Under the pieces are notes generated by a model. It had not been told where the DNA came from, made no database searches, and saw only the letters and a program-made list of their open reading frames with translations. A stretch of DNA of 64,000 nt from Ophiosphaerella korrae (lineage: Eukaryota; Ascomycota; Dothideomycetes; Pleosporales; Phaeosphaeriaceae): NCBI GenBank assembly GCA_028456385.1, contig JALNQF010000075.1, forward strand, positions 124,001-188,000. Direction: 5' to 3'. Each line of letters begins with the position of its first letter. The stretch's first letter is position 1. The translations under genes and the position numbers were made by a program. Below, piece after piece: positions 7,161-64,000 of this stretch.

Positions 7161-9400
7161 CCTTACTAATTTAGTTATTATAAGAAGTAAAGCGTAAGTA
7201 GCGTATAGTCTAGCTAATATAATAGAAAAAAGTTTAACTAAATAAATAAGTAAAGCACCTAAAAGTAGTTACGAGTTTAATAGTACTATATAGGAAATAA
7301 TTAAGGACTAAATTAATAACCTAATCTTAGATAAAGAAAATATAAAAATAGTAATTAACGCTTTAGAAACGTAGAACAAGGAACTATAAGATTATATAAA
7401 ATAAAATAAAGTATAAATTAAAGCTATTATTAAAGGCTAGAACTAAATAGAATTAATTACTTAAAGACTAGAGATAAGTATAATAAAGAAACTACTAAAA
7501 ATACCTATTCTTAAAAAGTTTAATAGAATAAAAGAAAAACTAAAACCTTTTATTATATTAGTATAACTCTAGATAGATATATAAGTACTATACTTTAATA
7601 TAGAAGAAAAGAAAGTAATATATATTAGACTATACCTAGAAGAAGATATAATAAGATAGTATAAACCCTACTAGACTAACTATATAATATATTTTCTAAT
7701 AACCTAGAAAGATAAAACTAGAGCTATCTTTAGAAGTTATAAATACTTTACTAAATAAATAAGAGTAGTATTTAGAGATATAGATATTATATAATAAGCT
7801 AAAGAATAGCTAGAAAAGCTTATATAAAGTTAGAGTATTCTACAATATATATTATAATTTAAATAATTATTATAGAATATAGAATAGAACGAGTTAGCCT
7901 TAATATTACAATTTAAGTAAAAACTAAACTCTAAAATCTAATATAAAATAATCTATATAGAAAAACTATAAATACTAGAAGCTCTAAAGTAATAAGTAAT
8001 CTAAATTAATAATAATCTTCGAGAATAGAAAAAGAATAAATATAGAGGTTATACTTAGAACTATAATAAAAGAGACTCTATAGTCTTTAATATAAATAAA
8101 GATAAAAAGAAGAAAAAAAACAAAGACTTTATATACTTTAATTATAGTAAAAAAGGCTACTACGTAAAAGATTACTAATTATAGAAGAAGAAAGATATAG
8201 TATATTATAAATATAAGAAACTAAGATACTTTATAAAAGTCTATAGAAGTAAAAACCTAAAGAAAAAGACTTAGTTAAAGATAACTAAGAAAAAGAAAGA
8301 AGTACTATAAGTATAAGCTAAACCTTAAAAGAAAGTAGCTAGAAGTAAAGAAGTATAATATATAATACTCTACTAGACCTTTTATTATAATTATAACTAC
8401 TATATATATCTATTTAGTAAATAAAAAGTAGTATAGTTCTTATAGAAATAGAAATATAGAGTAGCTATAATAAAAGAAAATAGAATAAAAGCTTAGCTAG
8501 AAGAAATAGCCTAAGTAATAGACCTACTAATAGAAGACTTAGAAGGGAAAGAGCTTTTAGTACTATTAATCTAAGCTAAAGGACTAGTATAAGATAGAGA
8601 AACTACTATAGCTACTTCTAAAAAACTATAAAGAAGTAAGAAATAAGTTAGTATAAAAGATATAAAGTATACTTAGCTAATAATATATAGTTATAATAGC
8701 TATATAATAATAGATATAGAGGAATAAAATAAAGAATAGAGATTTATTTAAATATACTTAATAGTTATAAGTATAGAGGAAGTATATAAAGACTAGAAAG
8801 AACGTAATCTTAAAGAAATAAAGTTTATACTATTTTAAGAATAGATAAAGTAATATATAGTTATAGTAAGAAGAATACCTATATAAAAAGAATAGTAATA
8901 CTTTATAAGAAAGACGTAATAGATTAATAAAGCCTATATACTAAGAGTACTAGTAGTATACTATATCTTAATAATAAATATACTTAGTAAAGACAAATAC
9001 TAGGAAGGGGATAATAAAATAATAGATCTAGAATATCTAGTATACTTTAAAGTATTATAGATATTATACCTAGATAAGAATTATATTATATATAGAAACT
9101 CTAAAGTAAATAATAATATATAGCTTATAAGAAGAAGAGGCTATAACTATATAAGAGTAATTCTAGTAGAAAATATCTAAGGATAGGAAATAATCCTAGA
9201 AGATAGATACGTAGTAGTAAGGCCTAGACTAAAATTAACTAAGAAATACGTCTAAAGAAGACTATAGTATAAATATATAAATAATAAATATCTAAAATAT
9301 AAAGAATATAAACTTAAAGTAAAGTTATAGCCTTAGAAAGATAGATAATTTATAAAGTTACCTAAGTAAGAAAAGCTAAAAGGTATAGGAAGCCTATATA
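7161..9400 (+). pseudogene. gag: Element B gag remnant with two mutated zinc knuckles
   Basis: Gag-like region following the 5' LTR. The first bases CCTTACTAATTTAGTTATTA are shared by B and (with few changes) D and G, and must contain the primer-binding site, although I cannot assign the tRNA. The zinc-knuckle region lies at about 8,130-8,265: the expected Cys codons are TAT/TAC (Tyr) here, as RIP predicts for TGT/TGC. Downstream, a long linker leads to the protease. There are many TAA/TAG stops and no product is expected. Boundaries come from comparison with D. Confidence 0.75.
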
Positions 9401-12400
9401 TTATAAAAACAAGTATATACTAAAAAAAGAGAGTATAATTAATAATTAATAGTAGAGCTATAAAGAACTTTATATTAAAGAAGTTTATAGAAATACTCTT
9501 AATAATTAAGTATAATTAAAGGAAAACTATTCTAGAAACTTATTAGGTTTAAAATAGTTCTCTCTATATTAGAACTAGAAAAGATAACTATTAAGAATAT
9601 AGTTATAGATATAACAACAATTAATAATAAATAAGATATAATATTAGGTATACTATAGTTATAGATAACTAACCTATATATTAATTAGAGAATAGAAAAG
9701 ATTAATTACTATAAAATAGAAATATTAAAAGCTAACATAAATACTTATAAAAGAGAATTCTCTAAAGAATATAAGAAATAGGAAAAATAACTTATAGAGC
9801 TAGAAGATTACTTTCTAGAATATTAACTATAGGACTTAGTAATAGAACTAGAAGAAAGTAAAAATATAAGATAAAGCCTAGTCTATTAAAAAATAGAAGA
9901 AGAATTAAAAATTAAATAAGTATTTACCTAAAATATAATAAAAAAAAGATAGATAAAAGAGTCTAAATCCTTAGTAGAATATAGACTTATATTTATAGAT
10001 AAAAAAAGAATAAGTAATAAAAGACTTTACGTAGATTTTAGAAAAACTAATATAATTATAAACAAGAACTACTACCTATTACTATAGATAGATAAAATAT
10101 AAGACAAACTATAAAGAGTAAAAATCTTTATAAAGTTAGATATCTAGAACGCCTACTACTAGATTAGAATTAAAAAAGGTAATAAGTAGAAGATAGTATT
10201 TAGAATATAGTATAAACTATATAAATATATAGTTATACTATTTAGATTAATAAACGCACTAGTAGTATTCTAGGAAAGAATTAATATAGTACTAAGAGAG
10301 TACCTAGATATATTTATATTTATATACTTAGATAATATCCTTATATTCTTAGAGATAGAAGAAGAATATATAGAGTATATATATAAAGTACTAAAAAAAC
10401 TAGTAGAAAATAAACTATTTCTTAATATAAGAAAATACAAGTTCTATATAAAAGAAATAGATTTCCTTAGGTTTATTATTAAACTAGGAAAAATTAAAAT
10501 TAACTTAGAAAAGATTAGGCTAATTAATAAATAGCTAATACTAAGAAACCTAAAAGAGGTATAATAGTTTTATAGGCTAGCTAACTTTTATAGAAAGTTA
10601 ATAGTAAGATAGTCTAAAGATATAAAACTAATAATAAGACTTATAAAAAAAGATATACTATTTAAATAGATAAAAGAATATAATAAAGTATTTAAGAAGA
10701 TTAAGAAGAAATTTATAGAAAACCTAGTTATTAGAATATATAACCTAGACTTACTAGTAATAGTAAAAATAGATATATCTAACTTAGTCTATAGAATAGT
10801 ACTAATATAGAAAGACTTAGAGACTAAAAAGAAATACTTAGTTAAATACTTCTCTAAGAAAATAAAAGAAGTAGAACTTAATTACTTAATCTATAATAAA
10901 GAAATACTAGTAATCTATAAAGTATTTAAATAATAAAGAGTATACTTATAAAAGATAAAATATTAGATAAAAGTCTATATAGACTATAAGAATCTTATAA
11001 GATTTATAATAAATAAAGAATTATTATAATACTATATAAAATAGTAGGAGTTTCTATTAATATTTAATATAGAAATTATATATATAAAAGGAAAAGATAA
11101 CTAATTTATAGATACCTTTAGTAGAAGACTAGACTTATAAAAAGAAGTAAACACTACTAGTATAGTTTTAGTTAAAAATAAAGAAGGATATTTAGTTCTA
11201 AATATACCTAAAATAGCTATAATACTTAAAAAAACGAGTAGCGAGCTAGATAAATAGATTTAGAAGATAATATAAAAAGTATCTAAAAAAATAAGAAAAT
11301 AAGAAATCTAAGAAGAATTTATATAAACCTATAGAAAAATATATATTCTAAAGAAGATTTAAAGAGAATTTATATAATAATTCTATAAATTACTAGTATA
11401 TAGTTACTAAAGTATTAAGAAAATATTAGATAGACTACTACAAGACTACTATATTCTAAAAGTAAGATAATTAGTAATAGAAGTACTATAAGACTATATA
11501 GAATATTATAAGAATAAATATAATAAATATATACTATATAGAATACTATAACTAGTAGAAGTACTAGAATAGCTATAAAGAGTTATTACAATAGACTTTA
11601 TTATAAAATTACCTAAGTCTAAAAACTTAATATTAGGAGTTAAGTATAATAGAATTATAATAATAGTAGATAAACTTATAAAGTACTTATACTTTAAGCT
11701 ATATAAAAAAAAGAGTAGGATAGAAGTTACTATATACTAAGTTCTAGGAACTATAATTAGTTAATATAGACTACTAGATAAAATTATTATAGATAGAGAT
11801 ATATAATTTATATTAAAATTATAGAGAATAATAGTAGCGTAATTAGAAATATAGTATATAATATCTATAGTATATAATCTATAAATAGATAGATAGTTAG
11901 AATAAATAAACTAGATAGTAGAATAATACTTAAGATACTACCTTAATTATAACTAAAACAACTAGGTATAGCTACTACCTATAGTATAGTTAGTATATAA
12001 TAGCGCAAAGAATATAGTAATAAAAGTATTACTTTTCTTTATAAACTATATATTTAAGCTTAATATATATTAGATACTAAGAAATTAGATATTTTAGTCT
12101 TTTAGAGGAGAAAACTTTACTAATAGACTTAAAGATATATATAACTAACTAAGATAAGACGTAGAATTCCTATATAATTATATAGCTAAGTACTATAATA
12201 AAAAGTATAAAGAAGGACCCTAATTTAGAAAGAGAGAAAAAGTATAGTTAGTATAGAAAAATATTAAGAGTAAATAACTAAGTTTAAAATTAGACTATAT
12301 TAAGATAAAACTATATAAAATTAAGAAAGAAGTTATACTAGTTATATTTAAATTAAAGCTACTAAATAAAATAAAGATATACCTAATATTTTATATAGCT

Positions 12401-50337: not shown

Positions 50338-50557
50338 TATAAAAGAGTTATCCTTTATATCTCTTATTTTTATACTAATATTAGTAAGTTATAAACTTAC
50401 TAATATTTAACTACCTTTCTACTTTTAGTTAGTACTTAGTAAGCTACTAGGTATATATACCTAGTACTTACTTAGATAGCTTTATTTACTATTTACTTTT
50501 TTTAGTTAATTATTAAAACTACCTTATTAAGTTATCTTATATAAAGTCTACTTTATA
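50338..50557 (+). repeat. 3' LTR of element I
   Basis: 220 bp, TATAAAAGAGTTATCC...GTCTACTTTATA. It holds a single copy of the palindromic AGTAAGTTATAAACTTACT unit. Confidence 0.85.
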
Positions 50558-50562
50558 GTATT

Positions 50563-51307
50563 ATTTTAATATAATCTAGTTTCGAATTTAGTTATTTACT
50601 TTTAAAATATTTTTATACTAACTATACTTTTTCTCTCTCTTTAAATTAGAGTCTTTTTAAGTATTTCTTTTTATAATATTTTACTATTCTATTATATAAA
50701 AATTCTACGTTTTATCTTAGTTAATTATATATTTCCTTAAGTCTATTTATAAGGTTTTTTCTTCTTAGTAACTAAGATTCTTTAGATCTTAGTATTTAGT
50801 ATATACTAGAGTTAAATCTATAGTTTATAAAGAAAAGTAATACTTTTATTACTATATTCTTTATACTATTATATACTAACTATACTATAAGTAGTAACTA
50901 TACCTAGTTATTCTAGTTATAGTTAAGGTAGTATCTTAAGTACTATTCTACTATCTAGTTTATATATTCTAATTATCTATCTATCTATAAGTAGTACACT
51001 ATTAATATTATATAATTAATTTATATTTATACTATTATTATTTTCTATAGTTTTAATATAAATCTTATATTTCTATTTATAATAATTTTATCTAGGAGTC
51101 TATATTAACTAATTATAGTTTCTAGAACCTAGTATATAGTAACTTCTATTCTACTTTTTTTTTTATATAGTTTAAAGTATAAGTATTTTATAAGCTTATC
51201 TACTATTATTAGAATTCTATTATACTTAACTTTTAATATTAGGTTTTTTAACTTAAGTAACTTTATAATAAAGTCTATTATAATAACTTTTTATAGTTAT
51301 TCTAGTA
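50563..51307 (-). pseudogene. pol: Element H pol remnant: integrase C-terminal part
   Basis: Minus strand, collinear with F at about 29,606-30,345 (CAAATTTACTTTT..., TATAGTATAGTTAGTATATAATAG-like block near 50,870). It ends at the first catalytic Asp region of integrase, after which unrelated sequence X begins. Highly AT-rich. Confidence 0.75.
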
Positions 51308-51319
51308 AACAATCTAATA

Positions 51320-51376
51320 GTAAGCCTGTATTAGGAAATAGAGGCACCCTATTTAGGGAATCTAGGCCTCGCTTAC
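51320..51376. repeat. Nested inverted repeat at the left edge of X
   Basis: The outer arms are GTAAGC (51,320-51,325) and GCTTAC (51,371-51,376). The middle arms are GAGGC (51,341-51,345) and GCCTC (51,366-51,370), the latter abutting the outer arm. The inner arms are CCCTA (51,347-51,351) and TAGGG (51,354-51,358). All pairs are perfect. The position, within 15-70 bases of the junction with H, suggests a subterminal structure. Confidence 0.7.
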
Positions 51377-52139
51377 AACTTTCGCGCTACACCTAAATAA
51401 GCAATCAACCTAGACGTTTACTATAAAACGCCCTCCCTCTATTATTATTTTCTCTCTCTCTCCTTAACCTTTTCTCTCTACTCTTACCCCTCTATCTACA
51501 CCCCCTTTATATACGCTAACTACTCTTATTAGGCCTTAGCGCATCTCTTATAAAGTATTTTTCAAATCCGCTACTACCTATTACTACACTACCTCTTCTC
51601 GTCTCTATTATTTTACCTTTATTTAGACTGCACCGTCTAGCTTTTCGTGCTCTAAAGATTTTAGCTACTAAAACTAATACTTAGCTTGCATTAACAAGCA
51701 TTTAGTAGCCCTCTTATTTTCTATTCTTATACTCTCGTACACTCTTACTTCTCTCTATTCTTTATTATAAGCTCTCCCCCTTCTCTCTTAAGATACTTGC
51801 TTACCTTACGTTAGTAGTAGCTATAGCTAAAGGGCGAAGCTCGCTACCTATTATATAGCTATACTAGTATATAGTCCTATAATACCCTCTCCCTTACTCT
51901 AGACTTACTACTAGCATTTACTACGCCTTTTCCTATTCCTATTTTAAGCGAACGAATGCGTATCTCTTACACTATTATCTTAGCTCTAATACGCCTATAT
52001 TGCGCCCTACTCCTTTAGTTAAATATACTAGACTAATCCTTTAGGTAGTAATATAGCTATTTACCTACATAACGCATTAATTTAGGCTATCCTAGCGTCT
52101 ATATTAGTACTAGTAGGATACTCTACCTTGTATAAAGTA
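51377..52139. other. Leader-like stretch of X, pyrimidine-rich, no gene assigned
   Basis: Contains a long C/T-rich segment (51,420-51,510 with CTCTCTCTCTCC) and other CT-rich tracts to 51,790, as in fungal promoter regions. An ATG at 51,956 opens a short plus-strand frame (MRISYTIILALIRLYCALLL) that could be a first exon of the following block. Nothing else is recognised. Confidence 0.35.
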
Positions 52140-53240
52140 TACAGCGTTGCTGTAATATTATAATATAACTAGTAAGAGGCTAATATCTAGAAGTTAGTAG
52201 CTAATAGCTTAGAGATAGCCTTAGGCGTACTATAGGAGGCGAACGAAGCCTTAAAGTCTAATTACTAGATAGTATAAAGCGCTGTTAGTAAGAATTACGC
52301 ATTTATACGTTATCTAGTATAGACCTATCCTACGTAAGAAAGTAGTTAGAGATTAAAGAAGAAGCTAGTAATTAGTAGTTTTATCTAAAGTAATATAAAT
52401 CCTTAGATAGCTAAAAGATACGCACGACCTAGTTATAATAACTATTTGCTAGCTAATCGTTATATAAGCTAAGCTAACTCTTAATACAATAAGCCTATCT
52501 ATACTACTTAAGAGGGTAATACGTAGTTCTTCTTAGAGACACTAATACTACTAAGCTTTAAGTTTATTTGTCCTCTCTATAAAGAGCGCCCTTGTACTAG
52601 TTGCTACGCCTACTATAACTATTTCTACGATAGATATAGTATTTCTATAAGCTATTCTTAGGTAGTAGTATTAACTACAATATATAAAGTAACGCTTAGT
52701 TTAGAGAAAGCTACTTCTATTAAACTCCTTACAATTAGAGAAGTTACTAGATTTCTATACTAAAAATAGCCTCCTCTTATAGTACCTTATTATTAGCCCC
52801 TTCTTTTCCTATAAAAATCGTTCTATACGTTCCTTAAGCGTCTAAGCCTAAGCTAAAATCTAGGGCTAAATTAATAGCTACAATAAAGATAGTAGAGTAT
52901 AGCTATTTAAGAGTTAGCTCTAAAGATAATAGAAAGTAGTTCTATATTAATAATTTCCTAATACTAGATTTAAATATATTACACTCTTTTAATCTAGGAG
53001 TACCTACTCTACTTAGAGCTATAGACGCTTCTACTTCGCTAGACTATAGTATTACTTACTTACTAACTATTACAAGCTAATAGAACTAAACTAATATATA
53101 GGCGTAGACGTAGTTAGTAGTCTTAGTACTACCTCTAAACTAGAGAAGCTAGAGTATTACTAGTCTAGTAGAGAATTACCTACTAGAAGAGAGATAGGCC
53201 GCGCTATAAGTATTATAAAGATAAACTTAGCTCTAAATAG
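52140..53240 (+). pseudogene. X1a: degenerate plus-strand coding block with a Cys cluster
   Basis: In the frame of 52,164 (TAT AAC) the plus strand reads as protein-like sequence, with TAA/TAG as Gln: EANIQKLVANSLEIALGVL, then ANEALKSNYQIVQ. A cysteine cluster follows at 52,569-52,604, CPLYKERPCTSC; if the Tyr codon TAT was TGT, this is C-x2-C-x4-C-x2-C, a zinc-binding pattern. From about 52,784 the reading shifts frame (KPKLKSRAKLIATIKIVEYS ... FNLGVPTLLRAIDASTSLDYS), so an intron or indel lies near 52,780. I do not recognise the family. About 360 residues. The next block (53,286 onward) is in the first frame again and may be the same gene. Confidence 0.45.
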
Positions 53241-53285
53241 TTTATTTAATAGAAATAGCCTAAGTAAGTATATAAGTAGAATATA

Positions 53286-55710
53286 GTGCTTATTTACTAA
53301 TTTATAATAGAATTTCCTTTACTTATAGAGAGTAACGTAGCTAAAGAGTATTATAATATAACGCAAGTTAAGCCTAGTAATAGAGCGCTAAGTACTAAAA
53401 GATACTATACTAGATAGAATAGTAATCTAGACGTAGCTAGTATACGTATCCTCTCTATAGAAAGTATAGAAAGTATTTACTATAGTAAGTAGTATTCTAG
53501 CACTAGTTAAGGAGCCTATTTTAATATCTTTAGAGCTATTACTAGTAGAAGACAAACTACGCTTTAGCATTAACGTAATAAATAGACCGCTATTAACACG
53601 TAAACAAATACACTATTTATCTAGTAATACAATAATCTCTTTAGTAGAGATATTAGATATTACGTTAGAACTAGAGCTAAAAGACCCTTACTTAGCAAAG
53701 TAGTAAAAGCTACCTAAGTAATAAGTAGAGAGTCTTATACTTAACTATATACCTACACCTAGTAGCCTAGATTTCTATTCTAGAGCTAGTAATAAGCCTA
53801 CTCTTAGCTCTCTTAATAGCTAAGGTAGCAGCGCTAGAAGCTTAGTCCTATCTTAAAATAGCCTTAAGGAAGAGAATAGTAATAATAGTATATATACTTA
53901 GAAAATAGTTAAAGAGCTATTCTATTCCTTAAGACAACCTATCTCTCCTCTTAAAGAAATAGAAGGTAATTAATATACTAATCTAGATTTAGACAGGCGT
54001 ACAAAGAAGAGTAACACTAGTAATAGCAAAATTAGAAAGAGCTACAAAGATAAACTTAGCTAGGTTAATAATACATCCTATAAAGCTTTAGTAACAACTT
54101 CTTAATAGTATAAACTAAGTAACTATCTAGTATAGAAGAAGGGACACAATCTATTACAAATTAGTCCTAGACTATAAGACTAGAGTACAGTGCCTACTAT
54201 AATATCGCGATAAGTATCGTTATCTTAATTATAACACCTATCTATATCTAGAACAAAAAAAGTTACTTAGTCTTGCTCTCTACAAAAATCCTATCTAGGA
54301 ACAAAGACTAGAGATAAACTTATTATTAGTAATAGTCCTAGCGATAAGATAGCTTACTAGATAGCTAATATTAGTCTTTACCCTATACTACAAGGCTTAT
54401 TAGTTGTAATAGTAATTATCTATTATAATAAGCTAAAATTACCTTTAAACTTAATAGCGCTATATCCTAGTATTCTTAGTAAGAGAGGCTAAGTTATCTA
54501 AATAACCTAGGTATCGCTAGACTTATAGTTGTTATTAGGATACTAATTTAGTAATATTACATATAATTGTAAAAGCTCGACGCTATATAATATAGACTAG
54601 ATAAGTAGTTTCTATAGTAATACTACTAGTTATAATAGTAACTACCTAGAAGATAACAAAGACAAAGATAACAAGAATAGAGATAAAGGTATAAGCAAAT
54701 ACAGACCTTATACTACTAGTAGTAATCTAGGGTTTAGTAGAAACAATATATACTTCTACTAACAAACGTATAAACTATAGAAAGAGTTAAACAAATAGCG
54801 CTTACTCTCGTACAAAAATAAGATAGCTATAGACTAAGATTAAATAGTTTCTTACTTCTTAGACTAGATAGTAGGTATAGTAAAACTACGCTACTACACG
54901 TTATACAAGAAGAATTCGTAGGGCTATTAGGATATACTTAATCTAGATATCCCCTACTACTTTCTAACAAAGATCGAAATCTCGCTTTATTAAGTTTAGG
55001 GCATTTAATAGATAGAGAAGTACGTATAGTAGATATACTACGCGTCTCTATAGTTATAGATAACGCAAAGGTCTAATTACTAGCTATAAAAGAGTATAGA
55101 AATCGTTAACAACTTTAATATCTATTACCTTAGCATAATATATCTTTATTTTAAGCTAAAGCGTTCCTCTACGCTCTATACCTAATACAATATTAACGCT
55201 AACTAGTCCTAAACGTATTACTCTCCTCGTTATCCTCCTTATATATAGTGCTAATTTTAACGTACGTATAGGCAGTAGAAGAGTAGAGGAGGTTTAAGAA
55301 TATCGCGTAACTACAAAGAGGAGCACTTTAATATTAGGCAAGAGAAGATATTAGTAGGATAGTAAGCGAGCGCGTTAACGTAAGAGTTAGCAAGGACAGT
55401 AAATACAACTAAATCTAGCTATAGCTAGGTTAGTCGATATAGTCGCTATATATACCTCGCAGTTATAATAAGAATATTTTCCGTGCTAGTTTACGTATTA
55501 GCTACCCGCGTATTACAAGGTAATAGGACTAACTATCTAGTATCTTATCTTGCTTGTTATCTCCTAAGGAATTAATAGAGTTACTATATACCCTCGCTAT
55601 TAGTTATAACTTTTGTAAACGCTTCTACTACAAGCTTAGTTACTAAAGAGTTAGTAGATAGTGTAACTAATAGGACTTTATAGGAAGAAGAAAGGCTTAT
55701 ATACGTTAAG
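53286..55710 (+). pseudogene. X1b: long degenerate plus-strand coding block, unknown
   Basis: Protein-like readings in successive frames. 53,286-53,600: EFPLLIESNVAKEYYNITQV. 53,602-54,200: DITLELELKDPYLAKQQKL, then a Ser/Asn-rich linker with TPSSLDFYSRAS. From about 54,760: KTTLLHVIQEEFVGLLGY, KDRNLALLSLGHLIDREVRI, and near 55,560 SPKELIELLYTLAISYNF. Frame changes at about 53,600 and 54,700 could be introns or decay. The Ser-rich linker followed by a more ordered C-terminal part looks like a large regulatory or element-encoded protein, but no motif is diagnostic. No transposase, helicase Walker motif or tyrosine-recombinase box was seen. Confidence 0.4.
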
Positions 55711-57060
55711 ATAGTAGGAAGTTGCTATTTATATAAAAAGCTTAATTTTAGGGTAATTTTAGTTACTTTTCTATTTTATACTAATATTTAAGCTACTTTA
55801 CTATTATATAAGCTATTAGCGTATTAAACTTAGAGATTTTTATAATTTTAAGTTTTAACTATATCTTATCTAATTTTACTACAATAGGTAATTGTATAGA
55901 AGTGTTAATTACTAAACAATTTTTTAATCCTAATTACTAAGAAGTTATATATAAGAGTAGAACTTGCATTAGGAAATTTTCTAGTTCTTATTTTTAAGCT
56001 TATCGCGACTACACATTCTACATAGGAAATAACTCTACTACTACTATAATAATATTAATATACGTATCTTACCCTATTACTACCTAAGTAAGTAATCTAT
56101 TCTCGCTTATCTCTTTAGGTATTATCTATAAATTTACCTACTATTTGTCTTTATCGCTTATATTTTCAAGATAGCAGAAAGGTTAGGTTTATTATAATTT
56201 TAATAGCTGTAACAATTAGATTAGTACAAGCTAAATTATATAGGTTCGAACTTGCCTATTATATTAACCTAATTAGGAGTAATAAGAGGTCTATATTTAA
56301 GGCTGTAGTTAAGTTAATACAATAAGTAAAGCTATAGCAAGTTAAAATAAACATAGTAGTACTTTTGTTGCCTATTCTATATTTATACCCTATAGAAAGT
56401 CTACTTAGGGTAGAGTAAATCTAATATTAGAATATATACGCTAAGAGCTATAAAGTAGGAATAGGTATTCTATTAATTAATTAGGCTTCCTTATATAACT
56501 ATTTTTATTAAGCTTTGCTACTAAACTAGCTAATTACGTTAATTTAATATAGTAACAAACGCGATATCGCTAGTAAGAAGCAGCTATACTACTACTACAA
56601 GTAGTATACACCTATAAGTAGATTATTAGTGCCTACTACTACTCTAAGCTACAAAATTTACGTAGCTACTAGTAATTATTTGTAAGCTTAGAGCGTTCCT
56701 TATAGCAACACTATAATAATTGTTATATATAGTATTAATAGTAATATTGTATTAGTATAGGTAATATCTTAAAGTTTTAGCGCGTAAAGTCTCCTTAGCA
56801 CAATATTAAGATACTTAGAAGAATATCCTTAAGGAAACTAGCTTATATTTTAAGCAACCCCACGTAACTATATAGTAGAATTACTACCTTACTAAGCTTT
56901 AAGATACTTGTAGCCTATATACACTACTACCTATAGTCCTAAGTATAGTATACTTAATATACAAATTGTAATACTCTTTAAGGGCTTTCTAATAGTAGTA
57001 GGATATAGCGCCGCTTCTCTAATAGTTTATTTAGGCTAGAGAATACTAGGAGGCTAAGAC
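55711..57060. other. AT-rich interval of X, coding strand unresolved
   Basis: 55,711-56,220 is the most AT-rich part of X and shows no convincing frame. In 56,230-57,060 both strands give open-looking readings: plus NYIVELLPYQALRYLQPIY near 56,870, and minus continuing the X2 block. I could not choose between them. Confidence 0.3.
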
Positions 57061-59940
57061 GAACTAAAGCTCTTACTAGCTAGAAGTTAGTATATAGACT
57101 AATTAGAAGCTAAGCTCTTACACGTAACTCTAGCTCTACTCTACATATAAAAAGGTTAAGTCTTTTTCTAGGTAGGAATTACTATAAATAGTAAATAACT
57201 CGTATTAACTTACGCTAGTACATACTTATATATCCTACCTATAATACGCCCTAGAGCTCCCTTTTCTACACGTAAGCGTAGCCCTCTAGATATATAATAG
57301 TTTAGTTAGCCTAGGTCGTAGAATTAATTAACAATTACCTATTAATAATATACACTACCCTAACACAATATTTACTAATTTGTTTTAGCTTACTATAGTC
57401 GCGAGTACAATTAGTTTCTAGTCCCTACGCTAGCTATATTCTTAGCGTATAGTCTATAGAACGTATAAAGAGTTATTAATATATATATTATTTACTTAAG
57501 CTATAGGCTAGCTACCTAAGATACTAAATTACACGTCTTGTTATTACCCTATTTACTATTATTAACAGCCTCTATATCTCTATTATTCTACTTAACGTAG
57601 TAGAAATCTCTATACTTTAAGTTCTTATATATATTAGACTTAGCATAACTTATTATCTACTAATTAGTCTAGATTATAAAGACTATCTAAGACCCTACTA
57701 AGTCTAAAGAGTTGTTGTTAATGTCTAACTTATATAGCTACTAGTTAGTAAAGAAGAAGACAATATTACTAAGTTTAATATAAACCTAAAGGCTAGTCTT
57801 AGGCAGCTTAAAGTTACTACCTTTACTAAGAACAAGTATTATAGAATAAAAATAGCTATCGTCTCCGTCGTTGTAGTAGTAACTAGTTCTACTACTAGTT
57901 AATATAGATACAGCTAATATACTCCTAATACTACTTATATAGTAACTAGAAGTGCTAGTGTAGCTAGAGTCTTTATTTAACTACGCCTACTAGGTCGCAG
58001 CAAACTTGTATATACTAGAAGTAGTACTAGTAATAGTAGCCTAAGCTATATCCCTATATCTCTAACGTATATAGTTATATATAGGCTCGTTAACTTTACA
58101 AAGTAGAGCAGCTAACTTCTTTAATAACTTATTAAGTGTATTAACTAGTTCTATTATAGCTAAGTTAAGCGCTAGTTTCTTTAGCTAACGTGTAGTAGAT
58201 ATAAAAAGTACTACTTAATACTTTATCTACACCCTAAACTAGGCTTACAAAAAGTTCTACCTATAGGCTTCTATAGTAGTAAATTTAAGTTTTAGCTAAT
58301 AACATTAGTATATTAGTATAGAGGTAATAGTAGAGTATACTTTAAATATATACTAATCTTATAGACTCTACTAAGCCTAGCAAAGTCTACTTTTACTCTA
58401 CTAAGACGCAGTCTATAAAGTAGATTATAGTGTAGCAAGAGATATTAGTACTATTAACGTAGTTTAGGTTTAGGATAGCTATATATATAATAGATACTAT
58501 ATATTAGATAGTATCTAAGTCTTACTATATTAGTGCGAGCTACTTAGACTTAAGAGCCTAAGGTCGCTACCTAGAGCCGTACTTAGACTAGACAAGATAT
58601 AGCCGCAGCTTAGTAGAGACCTTAAAAGAGAGCAAGTTATAGATAGCCTTCTGCGAAGCTTTAGAACTAGCCTTAGTTTATTACTATTTCTACGTCTACG
58701 CTAGCTTCTTAGTAGCTTAATTAGATATTCTAGAAGATAATATTCTAGAGGATAATATTATAAGAAGTTAACTACAATTAAATAAAGAAGTTTAAGAGTA
58801 AAGTAATAACTTATATACGTTTACTAGCGTGTAGAAAAGTAAATTATAGATACTTACTACAATATAGTAGCGCGCCTAGTACCTAGTAGTAGCTATAAAC
58901 AATACGCAACCTTTGTAATAGCTACGTATAAATAGAAGAAGGTATTAACCCCTACTAGCTAGCTATACTAAATAGCGTAGGGCGACTACTATAGTATCGC
59001 CTAGTTAGCTAACTTATACCTTACGCTAATTACCTTAACGCAAAGTTTAGGCCTTAAAGCCCTAAGTACTACTAAGCTTATATCTTTAGGTACCTACTTA
59101 CTCTACTATATTTATATCTTCTTATAGCTTAGAAAGAGCGATAGTAGTACTCCTCCTAAAACTCTAGTTAAGTCTAGCTACGCTAGCTAGGCTTAAGTTT
59201 AAGTCCTACCTATACTAAGCTCTATCTATTATTAGCGCGCCTCTTTACCCTACTACCTATTATATCTACCTTACTACTAATCGCCTAAGAGCTTATCTTA
59301 ATAAAAGCGCCGCCTCGCATAGTAAGATAGATTCTAAGGTAACTATAAGTCTTTAGCTAGCGCCTTTACTACTAGCTCTCCTAATAAAGTAGAAGTTACT
59401 TACTATAGCTATTTAGAGCTAAAGATACACTAAGTTACGCCTTAAAGACGTTAGAAGTAAAAGCCCTACTACGCTACTTAGTTAGCTAGCTTACGCTCTA
59501 GGCTAAAGGCATTAATATAGTATAAGAGTATACTACTATAGTCTCTATCTCTTCTAATACTCTAACGCTAGATCTTACTATAAGCTAAGCTACACTAGAG
59601 CTAATTATAGTTAACTACGTTGCCTAAGTAGCTAGCTTACACGCTAAGCTAGGAGTATAGACGTAGAGTAGTAATATACAATCTACCTTAGTAGGTCTAC
59701 GCCTAATTATATTATAGTATAGTAGCAAAGAGCTATAGTAGTAGTAAGGTAGCTACGTTATAAGAATAGCTTATAGTAGTTAATAAAGTAATAGAAGGTA
59801 AGATAATAGAGAGTAAGGCAATAGATAGTAACGTAATAGAGAGTAAGAAGTAAGTAGAGTAGAAGAAAATAAGATTAAGTTATTAACGTATATACGCAAG
59901 CGCCCGCGACGTAAAGCTACGTAAGTTTAAGTAGCTAATT
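57061..59940 (-). pseudogene. X2: long degenerate minus-strand coding block, unknown
   Basis: On the minus strand, with TAA/TAG read as Gln or Trp, protein-like segments follow one another. From 59,690: TKVDCILLLYVYTPSLACKL, LEEIETIVVYSYTILMPLA (Met at 59,512) and YLTMRGGAFIKISS (Met at 59,320, same frame). Near 57,900-57,560: YYYNDGDDSYFYSIILVLSK, IYKNLKYRDFYYVKQ, DIEAVNNSKQGNNKTCNLVS. To 57,130: GALGRIIGRIYKYVL and PFYMQSRARVTCKSLASN. Frame changes occur near 58,750 and 57,980. Opposite orientation to X1 and X3-X5. No known domain recognised. Confidence 0.4.
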
Positions 59941-60640
59941 AGATAATTATATTAGCTAGGGCCCTAGTTATATAATATTATAGCAATATACTAACTTAGC
60001 TATAGGCGGCCCTCTTACACAACACATATACACAGTTATAATTAATTAATTAGTTCTATTATTACGCTTATTAAAATATAATACCTAGCTATTACAAAAA
60101 AGCCTTTTTATTAACCTCTATTAAACTTGTATAAGTAACGCTTAAATCTAATAAAAGGGCTTTTTAAAACTAGACACAATAAAATAGTAATAAAGGTTAG
60201 TACTAAGTTAGGATTCTATACTATTAACAAATATATACAAGTCTTTTAAAAAAAAAAAAACGCTTTATAGAAAGGCTTTAATAAAATATAATTAACTATT
60301 AATAACTATACCTTAGTTTTATTAGAACTAATACAGAGTATACTACGTTTTACTCTATAGACTACATAGTGTTAAGGAGTAGTCTAGGCAACTAAATTTA
60401 TATAGAAGCAGTATTTAATAGGTATAATTTAAAACCTACTCTTCCCCTTTTAATTTACTAATATAGTACCTAGTATAGTTTATAGCTTAATAACCTCTAC
60501 CTACTTAAAACTAATTACTATTACCTAACTAGCCTCCTTATTCTATAGTATATTGCGAGGCTTCTAACAATAGATCTATTATATAGTACTCTATTTACTT
60601 TATACCTTCTACGTCTTCTCTATTGCTATTTATACTAATA
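59941..60640. other. Intergenic-like AT-rich stretch of X
   Basis: No coding frame seen. It contains AATTAATTAATTAG at 60,040-60,053, an A13 run near 60,248-60,260, and a segment at 60,088-60,150 resembling the right end of S1: AGCTATTACAAAAAAGCCTT here against AGCTGTTACGAAAAAGCCTT in S1 (about 13,237-13,256), and both finishing AAATCTAATA. Confidence 0.4.
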
Positions 60641-61560
60641 TTCTTAAACTAAGTTTCTTACTACTACTAACTAAGTTAAAGGAGAACACCTTAAGTAAAG
60701 GTAGAGGTAATAGCCTATAGATTAGGTGTTTAGGCGCAAACTATAATTTTAGCTATAACGTCTTAATATATAAGATAAGTAGAGATATCCTAAGCGCTAT
60801 TAAAGAGGTAGTACTTATTAGGAAGCTTAGTATAGTAAAGGCTTAAGATCGTGTAAAAGTAACGCTAGTTTAGAGACTTAAAGGTAGTATTAACGAAGTT
60901 AGTATAGCTATCCTAGATAGTCTAAGTAAAAGTATAAGGCTAGAATTACTATATTTTAGTAGTAAATAGAGTACTAGTAGTGCAAGAGAGTAGTATATAA
61001 GTTATATTATACTTAGTAGTCTATATAAAGTAGTAAAGGACCTAAACCTTAGTAGAGTTTAGAAGGCGCCTAGCGTACAAGTTAATAATAGTATTAACTC
61101 TAATATATACTTTAGTTAGGTCTTTCTCTATACTAAACATAGTACTAATATTAATCGCGTTCTTAATACTAGTGCAGTTAGACAGCTAAAGTAGTAGGTA
61201 AGGAACGTTAAGGAAAGGATTAGTAATCTAGATAGTAGAAATCTATACAATAATAGAGTTAACAGCCTATAAAGGGCGCGCTTAAAGTTAGCTAGTTCTA
61301 GAGGATATAATACTAAGGTAAGCTTACTAGAAGTAAAGAAGAAGTAAATATAGTAATATAGGAGTATAGACTAAGAAAGCAGCCTTATACACCTTAAGGC
61401 TACCTTTACCTATACGCTAGTAGTAGCTACCTATTCTTAGATAAGAGTAAAGGTACTACCTACCTTTATATAATAAGATAGCGTAGGTATATCCTTACTA
61501 TATCTACTTTAGTAGTACTACTACCTTCTTTTACCTATCTATCTACTTTATATACTATAA
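60641..61560 (+). pseudogene. X3: degenerate plus-strand coding block, unknown
   Basis: One plus frame (phase of 60,922) gives a continuous protein-like reading from about 60,650 to 61,400: SRDILSAIKEVVLIRKLSIV, DRVKVTLVQRLKGSINEVSI, HSTNINRVLNTSAVRQLK, NVKERISNLDSRNLYNNRVN, RARLKLASSRGYNTKVSLLE. Composition is balanced, with charged residues well spaced, unlike the low-complexity translations of noncoding DNA nearby. It may join X4 through an intron around 61,500. About 250-300 residues; family not recognised. Confidence 0.45.
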
Positions 61561-63400
61561 CGAGCACGTACTATAATAGCTAATCTAAGTCCTTAGCTCC
61601 TTTAACGTTCCTATATATGTAGACTCGAGCTGCGTAAGCGTAGCTAAGTAAGAGGGTTAATAGAGTATATACAGCGCTTTTGAATTTAGGTATACCTACT
61701 AGTAAAGAAGCTAGTTTAGTATATCTCTAATATACTAGCTCGCGAGCCTTATAAGCTCTTACAGCTTCTAGCAAACTCTATAGCACTCTAGGTTATACTT
61801 AAGCTAATAAGCTAGCTAGTGCTAGCCTAGTAGTAGTACTACCTTAGATAGGTCCTTAAAGTCTAATATAGCTTAAATACTACTCTATAACTATAGTATA
61901 AGTACTAGTATCTTTAAATCGTTGTAGTAGTAAATATACTACTTTACTATAAGCTCCTAGGTAGCGCTAAGACGTTAGTTTAGCTTAGAGCGTACGCTCT
62001 TCGATTTAACGCTACAAAAGCGTCGTAGATAGTCGTATAGTATATTGTAATTACGCAATAACTACGTTAAATTTAGCTTTTTTAATAGATCTATAGGCGC
62101 TAAAGTAGCTATAATTTACTCCTCTACGCTAGAATATAGGCTGTATTACAAAGCTATTGTTATTAGGCGAAAAAATGCGTGCGTAAGATAAAAAGTTAAT
62201 TAAATTTAGTATTAGACTATCTATAGCTAAGATACTCTATATCTTAGCTAGTATAGCAAGTAAATAACGTTTAAAGCAACTAATAAGTAATACTAGTAAG
62301 ATAGAATATATTATTATATAGCAAAGCAACTTAGGCCCTATATAATATACTAGTAAATTAGAAGATAAGAAATATAAACGCTACTTAAAGATAATAAAGA
62401 GGCTAAAAGAAAGGATTAAAAAGTTAATAATACTAAAATCGCTTGTAGTAAACACCTTAGGGCCTATTTAGTGCGCTAGCTATTTTTCAAATACCTAGTT
62501 TATACTAGAGGTAACGCTAGTAGCGTAGCTAAGGGCGCCTTAGTTTCTACTATTAGCCTTACTAAATCGAGCTAGATAAAATTTTAGTATATTTAGTATA
62601 GTAGTTTATCTATTTATATTCTATCTTAGTAGTTTTTATAACTATCTTAACTTTATAGAGCTTCTAAGTACGCCCTATAATATTAATCTTATGTAAGTTA
62701 CTTGCGCTACTCTTAGTAAGGCCTCTCTATCTCTATCTTAGTAATCCTTAAGTATAGTTACTACTACTCTTATATAGGCGCCTACACTATCGCTAGTACT
62801 AGTACTCTTACTATTATCCTAGCTAAATAGCACCTTTAAATAAAGTAATAAGAGTAAGCTAGCTCTTATTAATACTCTTATAAGCGCCTTTAACTATAGC
62901 CTCTACTTAGACTTAGAGTATAAGCTAGAAGCGTTAGCTTTAGTAATGCGCGAGGTATCTTAAGTCTCTAGCTAGGCTATAACTTAAGGCTAGTATAAGA
63001 ACAAGTACAACGTCTTTAAGAAAGATTATAGAGTTTATACTTAGCTCTTAAGTTAATCTAGGTTTAAGATAACTAGTAGTAGGCTAGTTAGCACCTCTAA
63101 GGGCGCACTTAGAGCCTATTTTAAAGCCTATAAAGATACTAAAAAGTTTAGAAATAAATAACTTAAGTATAAAGACTAGCTACAAACACTCTTTAAAAGA
63201 GTCTTAGCTACTAGCAAGTTATCTTAAAGCTTTAAGGAACTCTTAAGTAGTACTAGCCCTAATAATATTAGTAATTTAGTAGAGGTAGACAACAACCTAG
63301 ATAAGCTCTTAGATAAGACAGTTATACAGCGTAAAAGGGCTAGTATAGCGTCTACAGCGTAAGTTTAGCAGACTAAAAAATTAACCTCTACTAATTGTCT
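61560..63400 (+). pseudogene. X4: longest single-frame degenerate coding block in X, unknown
   Basis: A single plus frame reads for about 600 codons with TAA/TAG as the only stops. The only four ATG triplets on the plus strand of this interval (61,617; 62,175; 62,691; 62,946) all fall in that frame. Segments: VNRVYTALLNLGIPTSKEAS; GEKMRAQDKKLIKFSIRLSI; KYKRYLKIIKRLKERIKKL; LISAFNYSLYLDLEYKLEAL; YRVYTQLLSQSRFKITSSRL; DNNLDKLLDKTVIQRKRASI. The middle part (KYKRYLKIIKRLKERIKKL) is basic and could be helical or nucleic-acid binding; this is inference. Possibly upstream X3 is part of the same gene. No family recognised. Confidence 0.5.
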
Positions 63401-63439
63401 TAGCTTATATTTAGGTAATATAAACAATTAGCTTAAGTC

Positions 63440-64000
63440 TATTGTAATTGTAGTTTTAAAACTAATAAGGCTTTAGCTATCTTTTAAGCTAACTTTAACG
63501 TGCTCCTATATAGGCTTCTAATAACTATTGTAGACTTCTTTGCTAATAAGTTTACGTCCTAGAAGTTTATATTTTTGTCGCTAGAATATTATAAAAAATA
63601 GGTTCGAGATAAGCTCTTAGAGTAGCGTAATATACTAAGATAGCGTATATAATAGAGAGTCGTTTAACAATATAATAGCGAGCTTAGTATAGGAAGGAGA
63701 TAGTATTTTAGAGTTAAAGCGTTAAGATAGAGAGACTAAGCTAAGTTTGTAGAAATTGCTAAGTCTAGTAAGTAACTAAAGTAAAATAACTATAGTAAAT
63801 ATAGAAATAGCTAAAACGTCTATATATAATAATAGTTACTACAAAATTATATAGATAGCAATACTTACTTATAATAATACTTATCTCTATATAGTATTTA
63901 AGCTAGATTACTATATACAACTACGTATAAACTCTATAGAGATAGCTACTTAGAGACTTTACTCTTACTCTTACTACCTAGCGAGCCTTAGTAGTAGCGT
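63440..64000 (+). pseudogene. X5: degenerate plus-strand coding block, runs off the window
   Basis: In the phase of 63,461 the plus strand reads TNKALAIFQANFNVLLYRLL, ANKFTSQKFIFLSLEYYKKQ, RDKLLEQRNILRQRIQQRVV, GRRQYFRVKALRQRDQAKF, YKLYRDSYLETLLLLLPSEP. It is Arg- and Gln-rich with an amphipathic character. It is in a different frame from X4, so it is either a further exon or a separate gene. It continues beyond 64,000. Confidence 0.4.

What the first reader, a model, noticed from the sequence alone, without database searches (positions are those of the whole stretch)
51308..64000. Candidate undescribed large mobile element or cargo (X)
At least 12.7 kb with no recognisable retroelement or transposase, coding-like blocks on both strands, moderate RIP, a structured left edge, and apparent precise insertion into integrase of H. 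Moderate RIP implies that it is, or was, duplicated in the genome. The blocks have balanced composition and share no motif I can name.
Basis: partly seen in the sequence, partly recalled or inferred. Interest (0 to 1): 0.8.

Follow-up and report, generated by a model that had tools for sequence, protein, structure and literature searches.

The report
Tail of a giant fungal Starship transposon
The stretch is the far end of a roughly 140,000-base fungal "Starship" jumping element that multiplied to several near-identical copies and was then riddled with mutations of the kind made by a fungal anti-repeat defence; the kind is known, but so many copies of so large an element is unusual.

Summary
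The observation largely holds and the edge was called to the base. X (window 51308 onward) is multi-copy DNA with a precise end inside a Ty3-like retroelement. It is not a separate 12.7-kb element but the 3' tail of a Starship-type giant transposon whose captain (DUF3435 tyrosine recombinase) lies at the other end. Contig C656 carries a copy with both ends: 139.9 kb between TACT direct repeats, short inverted repeats at the tips, both flanks in one retroelement copy, captain match 1.2 kb inside the 5' end, a DUF3723 match within. The window's 3' flank and the 5' flank of contig C138 fit one retroelement site with a 4-bp TACT overlap, so C138 probably holds the captain end of this very insertion. 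End and probe counts give 5 to 8 copies. Five tails differ by 1,014-1,363 transitions but only 1-6 transversions per 16 kb: they were almost identical when RIP-type mutation struck. One copy keeps a 1.2-kb unmutated island. No Pfam family passes its cut-off in the tail. Verdict: new member of a known kind; unusual in copy number for its size. All 23 ends examined (this family and its siblings) lie in AT-rich DNA.

The parts
51304..51307 (-). TACT direct repeat (target site duplication) at the 3' end of the element, captain strand
   Evidence: Sequence; overlap with the C138 5' flank in 10 of 10 H copies listed
51307..51320 (+). Terminal inverted repeat, AAACAATCTAATAG here; its partner stands at the captain ends
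51308..64000 (-). 3' tail of the Starship-type element (captain strand is minus); continues past the window to the contig end at window-equivalent 67794
   Evidence: collinear to C656, which holds both ends
50554..51307 (-). Fragment of the Ty3-like retroelement H that holds the insertion
   Evidence: Matches six other H copies in the window at 81-87%; orientation
11562..11565 (+). Corresponding empty target site (TACT) in another H copy of the window
9995..11023 (+). Reverse transcriptase and RNase H matches of that H copy, showing that H is Ty3-like
   Evidence: RVT_1 41.6 bits, RT_RNaseH_2 55 bits, RT_RNaseH 44 bits

Best explanation
X is the 3' tail of a Starship-type giant transposon. SHOWN by sequence: the copy in contig C656 has both ends 139.9 kb apart, TACT on either side, a short inverted repeat at both tips, a DUF3435 tyrosine-recombinase (captain) match near its 5' end reading inward, a DUF3723 match inside, and both flanks in one Ty3-like retroelement copy. 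The family is present in 5-8 copies at different sites, with RIP-type mutations. INFERRED: the captain cut the element at its tips and inserted it at TACT, a motif common in RIPed AT-rich DNA. It reached several copies within a short time, perhaps by movement followed by mating between strains that carried it at different sites. RIP then mutated the copies, largely one by one, and broke the captain. The window's copy probably has its captain end on contig C138 (from about C138:32012). The middle of C656 was sampled by probes, not read through.
For: Captain-domain search: 45 matches, among them RIPed copies in C656, C402, C241, C138, C882, C298 and C95. These seven share one 5' edge to within a few bases. 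C656 captain 161.6 bits with 26 stops. Inverted repeat at both tips. Both C656 flanks lie side by side in H in 9 of 9 copies listed, apart from a constant 24 bp explained by a deletion between two 10-bp repeats in the right flank. Of 42 flank pairs tested, 3 fit one site: C656-C656, C138-C723 and C298-C77. TACT at 22 of 23 ends examined. A probe 29.5 kb inside lies at the identical offset of 29,516 bp in C138 and C656; a probe 59.5 kb inside hits 8 places; the stretch 114-122 kb inside is in 4 places besides C656. DUF3723 at C656:50574-51296. End patterns: 19 and 9 matches in the genome against 0 for the reversed control. 1,014-1,363 transitions against 1-6 transversions in each of 10 tail pairs.
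Against: The window's contig breaks off before any captain: the link to C138 rests on one shared target site. Most of C656:13501-110000 was not read, so further nested elements there are possible. The C656 flanks need a 24-bp deletion beside the 3' end. C714, a sibling, does not read TACT at its edge. C95 and C241 differ by a few bases at the 5' tip. No typical cargo domain was found in about 44 kb of the 3' part and 4 kb of the 5' part scanned. Numbers of 5' ends, 3' ends and inner probes differ (7, 5, 6, 8), so not every copy need be complete.
Confidence: 0.93

Rival explanations
1. X is a separate, shorter mobile element with its own mobility gene that happens to abut a Starship in C656.
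For: The window shows no captain. A weak DDE_Tnp_4 match lies at window-equivalent 64468-64767 (18.1 bits, cut-off 24.8).
Against: The tail tip carries the captain-end inverted repeat. C656, C138-C723 and C298-C77 pair a captain end with a tail end at one site, TACT shared. Collinear DNA continues through the contig breaks at 67794 in C623, C656 and C372. No Pfam transposase over cut-off in X.
Confidence: 0.03
2. X is a host segmental or subtelomeric duplication, not a transposon; two contigs ending in the same repeat suggest chromosome ends.
For: C723 and C627 both end at the same AAAGTA-type repeat.
Against: C623, C656 and C372 run straight on past that repeat. The ends are exact and flanked by unrelated insertion sites with TACT.
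Confidence: 0.01
3. Same Starship, other history: one copy was RIPed first and the damaged copy then spread (moved by a captain elsewhere).
For: Siblings with less mutated captains and ends exist (C261, C165, C312, C395, C148, C5). Sites changed in all five copies cannot be assigned to either order. Shared changes depart somewhat from independence (16 for C723+C656, 89 for C623+C372).
Against: 2,463 variable C/T or G/A columns, 780 of them changed in one copy only, and shared pairs follow mainly how heavily each copy was hit. The C627 copy has a 1.2-kb stretch with CRI -0.78 and GC 0.64 where the others are mutated, which a spread of already damaged DNA would not give by itself.
Confidence: 0.15

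Closest known systems
Starship superfamily of Pezizomycotina (captain = DUF3435 tyrosine recombinase)
   Same: Captain at the 5' end reading inward, short direct repeats, terminal inverted repeats, tens to hundreds of kb, DUF3723 inside, insertion into other transposons and AT-rich DNA (passages of PMC12134995, PMC11905480, PMC12153272)
   Different: 5-8 near-identical RIPed copies in one genome; in Aspergillus fumigatus mostly one copy per strain, though other species are said to gather several (passage of PMC12153272)
Horizon, 143-kb Starship of Pyrenophora tritici-repentis
   Same: Size, captain at the 5' end, direct repeats at the edges (abstract and passages of PMC9594970)
   Different: Described as a single mobile copy at different chromosomes in isolates; sequences were not compared here
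RIPed, gene-poor Starship of Gaeumannomyces tritici type A
   Same: Extensive RIP and few recognisable genes (passages of PMC11905480 and PMC12134995)
   Different: A single element under 100 kb there; a multi-copy family of 140 kb here
Crypton
   Same: Tyrosine recombinase
   Different: Recalled: small, no terminal inverted repeats; the captain domains are very distantly related (passage of PMC12134995)

Membership tests
Starship | DUF3435 tyrosine recombinase as first gene at the 5' end, reading inward | tested here: met
   Met for C656 and six sister ends. For the window's own copy only through the C138-C723 site match
Starship | Short direct repeats (target site duplication) | tested here: met
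   TACT at 22 of 23 ends; single TACT in unoccupied H copies
Starship | Terminal inverted repeats (common, not universal) | tested here: met
   AAA[C/T]AATCYRAYRG at both tips
Starship | Size of tens to hundreds of kb | tested here: met
   139.9 kb between the two TACT in C656
Starship | Mobility: same element at different sites | tested here: met
   Different flanks at shared ends
Starship | Recurrent accessory gene such as DUF3723 | tested here: met
   C656:50574-51296, 72.6 bits with 22 stops
Starship | Variable cargo with recognisable genes | tested here: inconclusive
   No Pfam family over its cut-off in six frames of the 16.5-kb tail or of 27.4 kb more; most of the middle was not read
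Starship | Working captain and placement in a named captain family | not tested
   Captain broken by stops; no reference captains were at hand, no tree built
Starship | Host in Pezizomycotina | tested here: inconclusive
   Species unnamed; best captain relatives are Pleosporales, but captains can move between species
Crypton | Small element without terminal inverted repeats (recalled) | tested here: not met
   139.9 kb with inverted repeats
LTR retroelement | Reverse transcriptase, RNase H, integrase in X | tested here: not met
   None in six frames of X, while the same method finds RT and RNase H in H
Helitron, Polinton, KDZ, Plavaka | Rep/helicase, DNA polymerase B or DDE transposase of that group in the element | tested here: inconclusive
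   None over cut-off in the scanned parts; the rest of the element was not scanned and these families were not searched one by one

The most novel reading that the evidence does not exclude
A captain lineage that uses RIPed heterochromatin as its landing pad. Its TACT target is 3.5 times as frequent in the RIPed nest as base composition predicts, and all 23 ends examined lie in flanks of at most 25% GC, even where the element's own end is 49-60% GC (7 of 23). This let a 140-kb element gather 5-8 copies in harmless places until RIP struck them, while siblings that share little more than the tips kept better preserved ends.
Probability: 0.3. Interest if true: 0.6.

Novelty: new member of a known kind. 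Interest (0 to 1): 0.45.

Why it matters
Whether RIP limits Starship copy number is raised in print, and RIP is already said to be able to degrade multi-copy Starships (passage of PMC12153272). Here a 140-kb element reached 5-8 copies and shows RIP-type damage at the places compared, beside sibling elements with well preserved ends and one copy with an unmutated island. Order of events, evenness and escape could be measured in one genome. It also shows how the captain-less tail of a Starship on a broken contig can look like an undescribed element.

Tried and rejected
Open-frame search in the window part of X: nothing of 100 aa. Codon-phase test of transversions against C77 and C186: no signal. 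Pfam, six frames, stops as X: no family over cut-off in X, C656:9501-13500, C656:110001-124900 apart from an unscanned 200-bp gap, C623:188901-193800 and 195001-198806, or the C627 island. Below cut-off: Myb_DNA-bind_3 at window 62859-63068 (15.2 bits; the genome search with that family gave 7 hits, none on the contigs of the five X copies) and DDE_Tnp_4 (18.1 bits). The method does see RIPed genes: captain, RT and RNase H. A separate short element, segmental duplication and Crypton were considered and rejected (see rivals, membership). An unmutated source for the C627 island was looked for: of 11 matches the best beside itself is 77% identical. Species: not determined. Papers: search listings and passages were seen, no whole text; PMC9156397 is not held. 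I make no claim that this element is unpublished: the species is unknown and no search of mine could show it.
Full report
WHAT WAS CHECKED. The window is C723:124001-188000 of an unnamed 63-Mb genome in 974 contigs. A 2-kb probe from X finds four further full-length places at 93-94% and more diverged ones (20 matches). Copies run from the same edge with different flanks over 16.5 kb in C623, C656 and C627; in C372 over 16.0 kb plus a 0.46-kb tip piece set apart by about 7 kb. X does not stop at 64000: contig C723 ends at window-equivalent 67794 in an AAAGTA-type repeat and C627 ends at the same point, which I read as an assembly break. C623, C656 and C372 continue. C656 lacks a 9.9-kb stretch that C623 has (C623:188901-198806); C372 shares its first 2 kb before that contig ends.

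THE OTHER END. A search with the Starship captain domain DUF3435 gave 45 matches, among them strongly RIPed copies in C656, C402, C241, C138, C882, C298 and C95. C656 carries captain matches at 7231-8569 (+) and a tail ending at 145867. The seven captain copies share one 5' edge to within a few bases, at 5986 in C656; C241 and C95 differ by a few bases at the very tip. Between the two TACT of C656 lie 139,874 bp. The tips carry one inverted repeat, AAA[C/T]AATCYRAYRG; in the less RIPed sibling C261 it reads AAACAATCCGACGG.

TARGET SITE. Both C656 flanks align side by side to the retroelement H in 9 of 9 copies listed, with a constant offset of 24 bp from a perfect 4-bp overlap. Those 24 bp are missing in the right flank between two 10-bp direct repeats and are read as a deletion there. 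Of 42 pairs (7 captain-side by 6 tail-side flanks), 3 fit one site: C656 with itself, C138 with C723 (4-bp overlap in 10 of 10 copies listed) and C298 with C77 (4-bp in 9 of 10, 3-bp in one). So the captain end of the window's copy is probably C138:32012; two insertions at one preferred site in different H copies are not excluded. TACT stands at 22 of 23 ends; the exception is C714. The 3' pattern used genome-wide contains TACT, but the alignment search that found the same tail ends does not depend on it. Reversed control patterns gave 0. Five of the 19 matches have two mismatches and may be chance. H is Ty3-like by its RT and RNase H domains.

COPY NUMBER AND COLLINEARITY. Captain ends of the family: 7 places, C656 included, at 90-93% to it, of 15 matches; C882 and C95 are cut by contig ends. 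Tail ends: 5 places of 18 matches. A probe 29.5 kb inside hits 6 places at 86-100%, and C138 has it at the identical offset of 29,516 bp. A probe 59.5 kb inside hits 8 places, one of them (C87) split. The stretch 114-122 kb inside lies over its full 8,059 bp in 4 places besides C656. I conclude 5 to 8 copies, about 0.7-1.1 Mb of the genome (inference). With the 9.9-kb stretch, other copies would be about 150 kb (inference).

RIP AND TIMING. Ten of ten pairwise comparisons of the tail show 1,014-1,363 transitions against 1-6 transversions over 16.0-16.5 kb: the divergence is nearly all of the RIP kind, and the copies were almost identical when mutated. Of 2,463 variable C/T or G/A columns, 780 are changed in one copy only and 779 in four. 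Shared pairs mostly follow how heavily each copy was hit, with moderate departures from independence. The kept C is followed by A 836, G 751, T 728 and C 148 times, so the mutations are not confined to CpA. The composite RIP index is 1.83-1.97 in the five copies and 1.64 in window 1-51300. One exception: the C627 copy holds an island of about 1.2 kb (window-equivalent 58800-60000) that is little mutated, GC 0.64 and index -0.78 over 981 bp, where the other four copies have GC 0.24-0.42 per window. It accounts for 232 of the 324 sites at which C627 alone keeps C or G. No unmutated source was found; the other matches are 71-77% identical and include a related stretch at the captain-side part of the element (C656:18197-18838). 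A skipped tract, conversion from a copy not in the assembly, or an assembly chimera remain open.

CONTENTS. No Pfam family passes its cut-off in the 16.5-kb tail in six frames with stops as X, nor in 27.4 kb more of the element, although the same method sees the captain at 161.6 bits through 26 stops. DUF3723, a recurrent Starship gene, matches inside C656 at 50574-51296 with 22 stops; of 38 matches in the genome, C538 and C87, contigs with inner probes of the family, also have one. The last 3.5 kb shows no codon phase. The 3' third looks gene-poor or filled with unrecognised genes.

MECHANISM. Shown: captain gene, tips, direct repeat, unoccupied target copies, several insertions, RIP-type damage. 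Inferred from established knowledge of tyrosine recombinases and Starships: cutting and insertion by the captain at TACT. A tyrosine recombinase does not by itself copy the element; a published suggestion is that movement followed by mating between strains with the element at different places makes it multi-copy (passage of PMC12134995). All 23 ends examined lie in flanks of at most 25% GC (91-300 bp measured), and in 7 of 23 the element's own end has 49-60% GC (C261, C165, C188, C312, the C5 end at 92614, C395, C148), so the flank was AT-rich on its own account. TACT is 3.5 times as common in window 1-51300 as base composition predicts (0.0214 against 0.0060 per position). Insertion into transposons and AT-rich DNA is already reported for Starships (passage of PMC12134995).

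RELATIVES. Sibling elements share the tips: tail ends in C186, C165, C188, C395, C312, C148 and two in C5, captain ends in C261 and C714. C77 is a mosaic: 93% to C656 59.5 kb inside but 76-80% in the tail. A C261 captain piece (489 residues, stops as X) finds 105 database proteins; the best is 51% identical over 99% of the query, from Lentithecium fluviatile, and the next two are from Clohesyomyces aquaticus and Plenodomus tracheiphilus, all three Pleosporales. Identities up to 82% occur over about a quarter of the query. Only proteins of 0.55-1.75 times the query's length could be found.

VERDICT. A Starship by the structural features that could be tested; a new member of a known kind, notable for copy number at this size and AT-rich targets. 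Confidence 0.93, interest 0.45.

Noticed in passing
C627:about 7800-9000 (L010), window-equivalent 58800-60000: An island of about 1.2 kb with GC 0.64 and no RIP signature inside an otherwise fully RIPed copy, aligned without gaps; holds two overlapping low-complexity frames of 146 and 187 residues, no Pfam match.
   Followed up: partly
C77:8257-9756 and C77:71154-74247 (L023): Mosaic sibling: 93% to C656 in the middle, 76-80% in the tail; its 3' flank fits the same retroelement site as the C298 captain end.
   Followed up: partly
C165:9374, C188:11609, C312:14912, C395:28849, C148:50098, C5:92614 and C5:126411, C186:31310: Eight sibling tail ends with the same tip; six of them little RIPed (GC 0.49-0.60), all in AT-rich flanks. 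The genome seems rich in Starships of this end type.
   Followed up: partly
C261:24493-27437 (L027, L040): Captain end at 80% to the C656 one, with few stops but a frame shift: a better preserved sibling.
   Followed up: partly
C623:188901-198806 against C656:128059/128060: A 9.9-kb stretch absent from C656; C372 has its first 2 kb, and matches of C275, C273 and C476 stop at the same point.
   Followed up: no
window 1-51307: Nest of RIPed Ty3-like H copies and other repeats, several nested in each other.
   Followed up: no
G000 genome-wide: DUF3723: 38 matches, some with no stop inside (C304, C55, C183), that is, apparently unRIPed.
   Followed up: no
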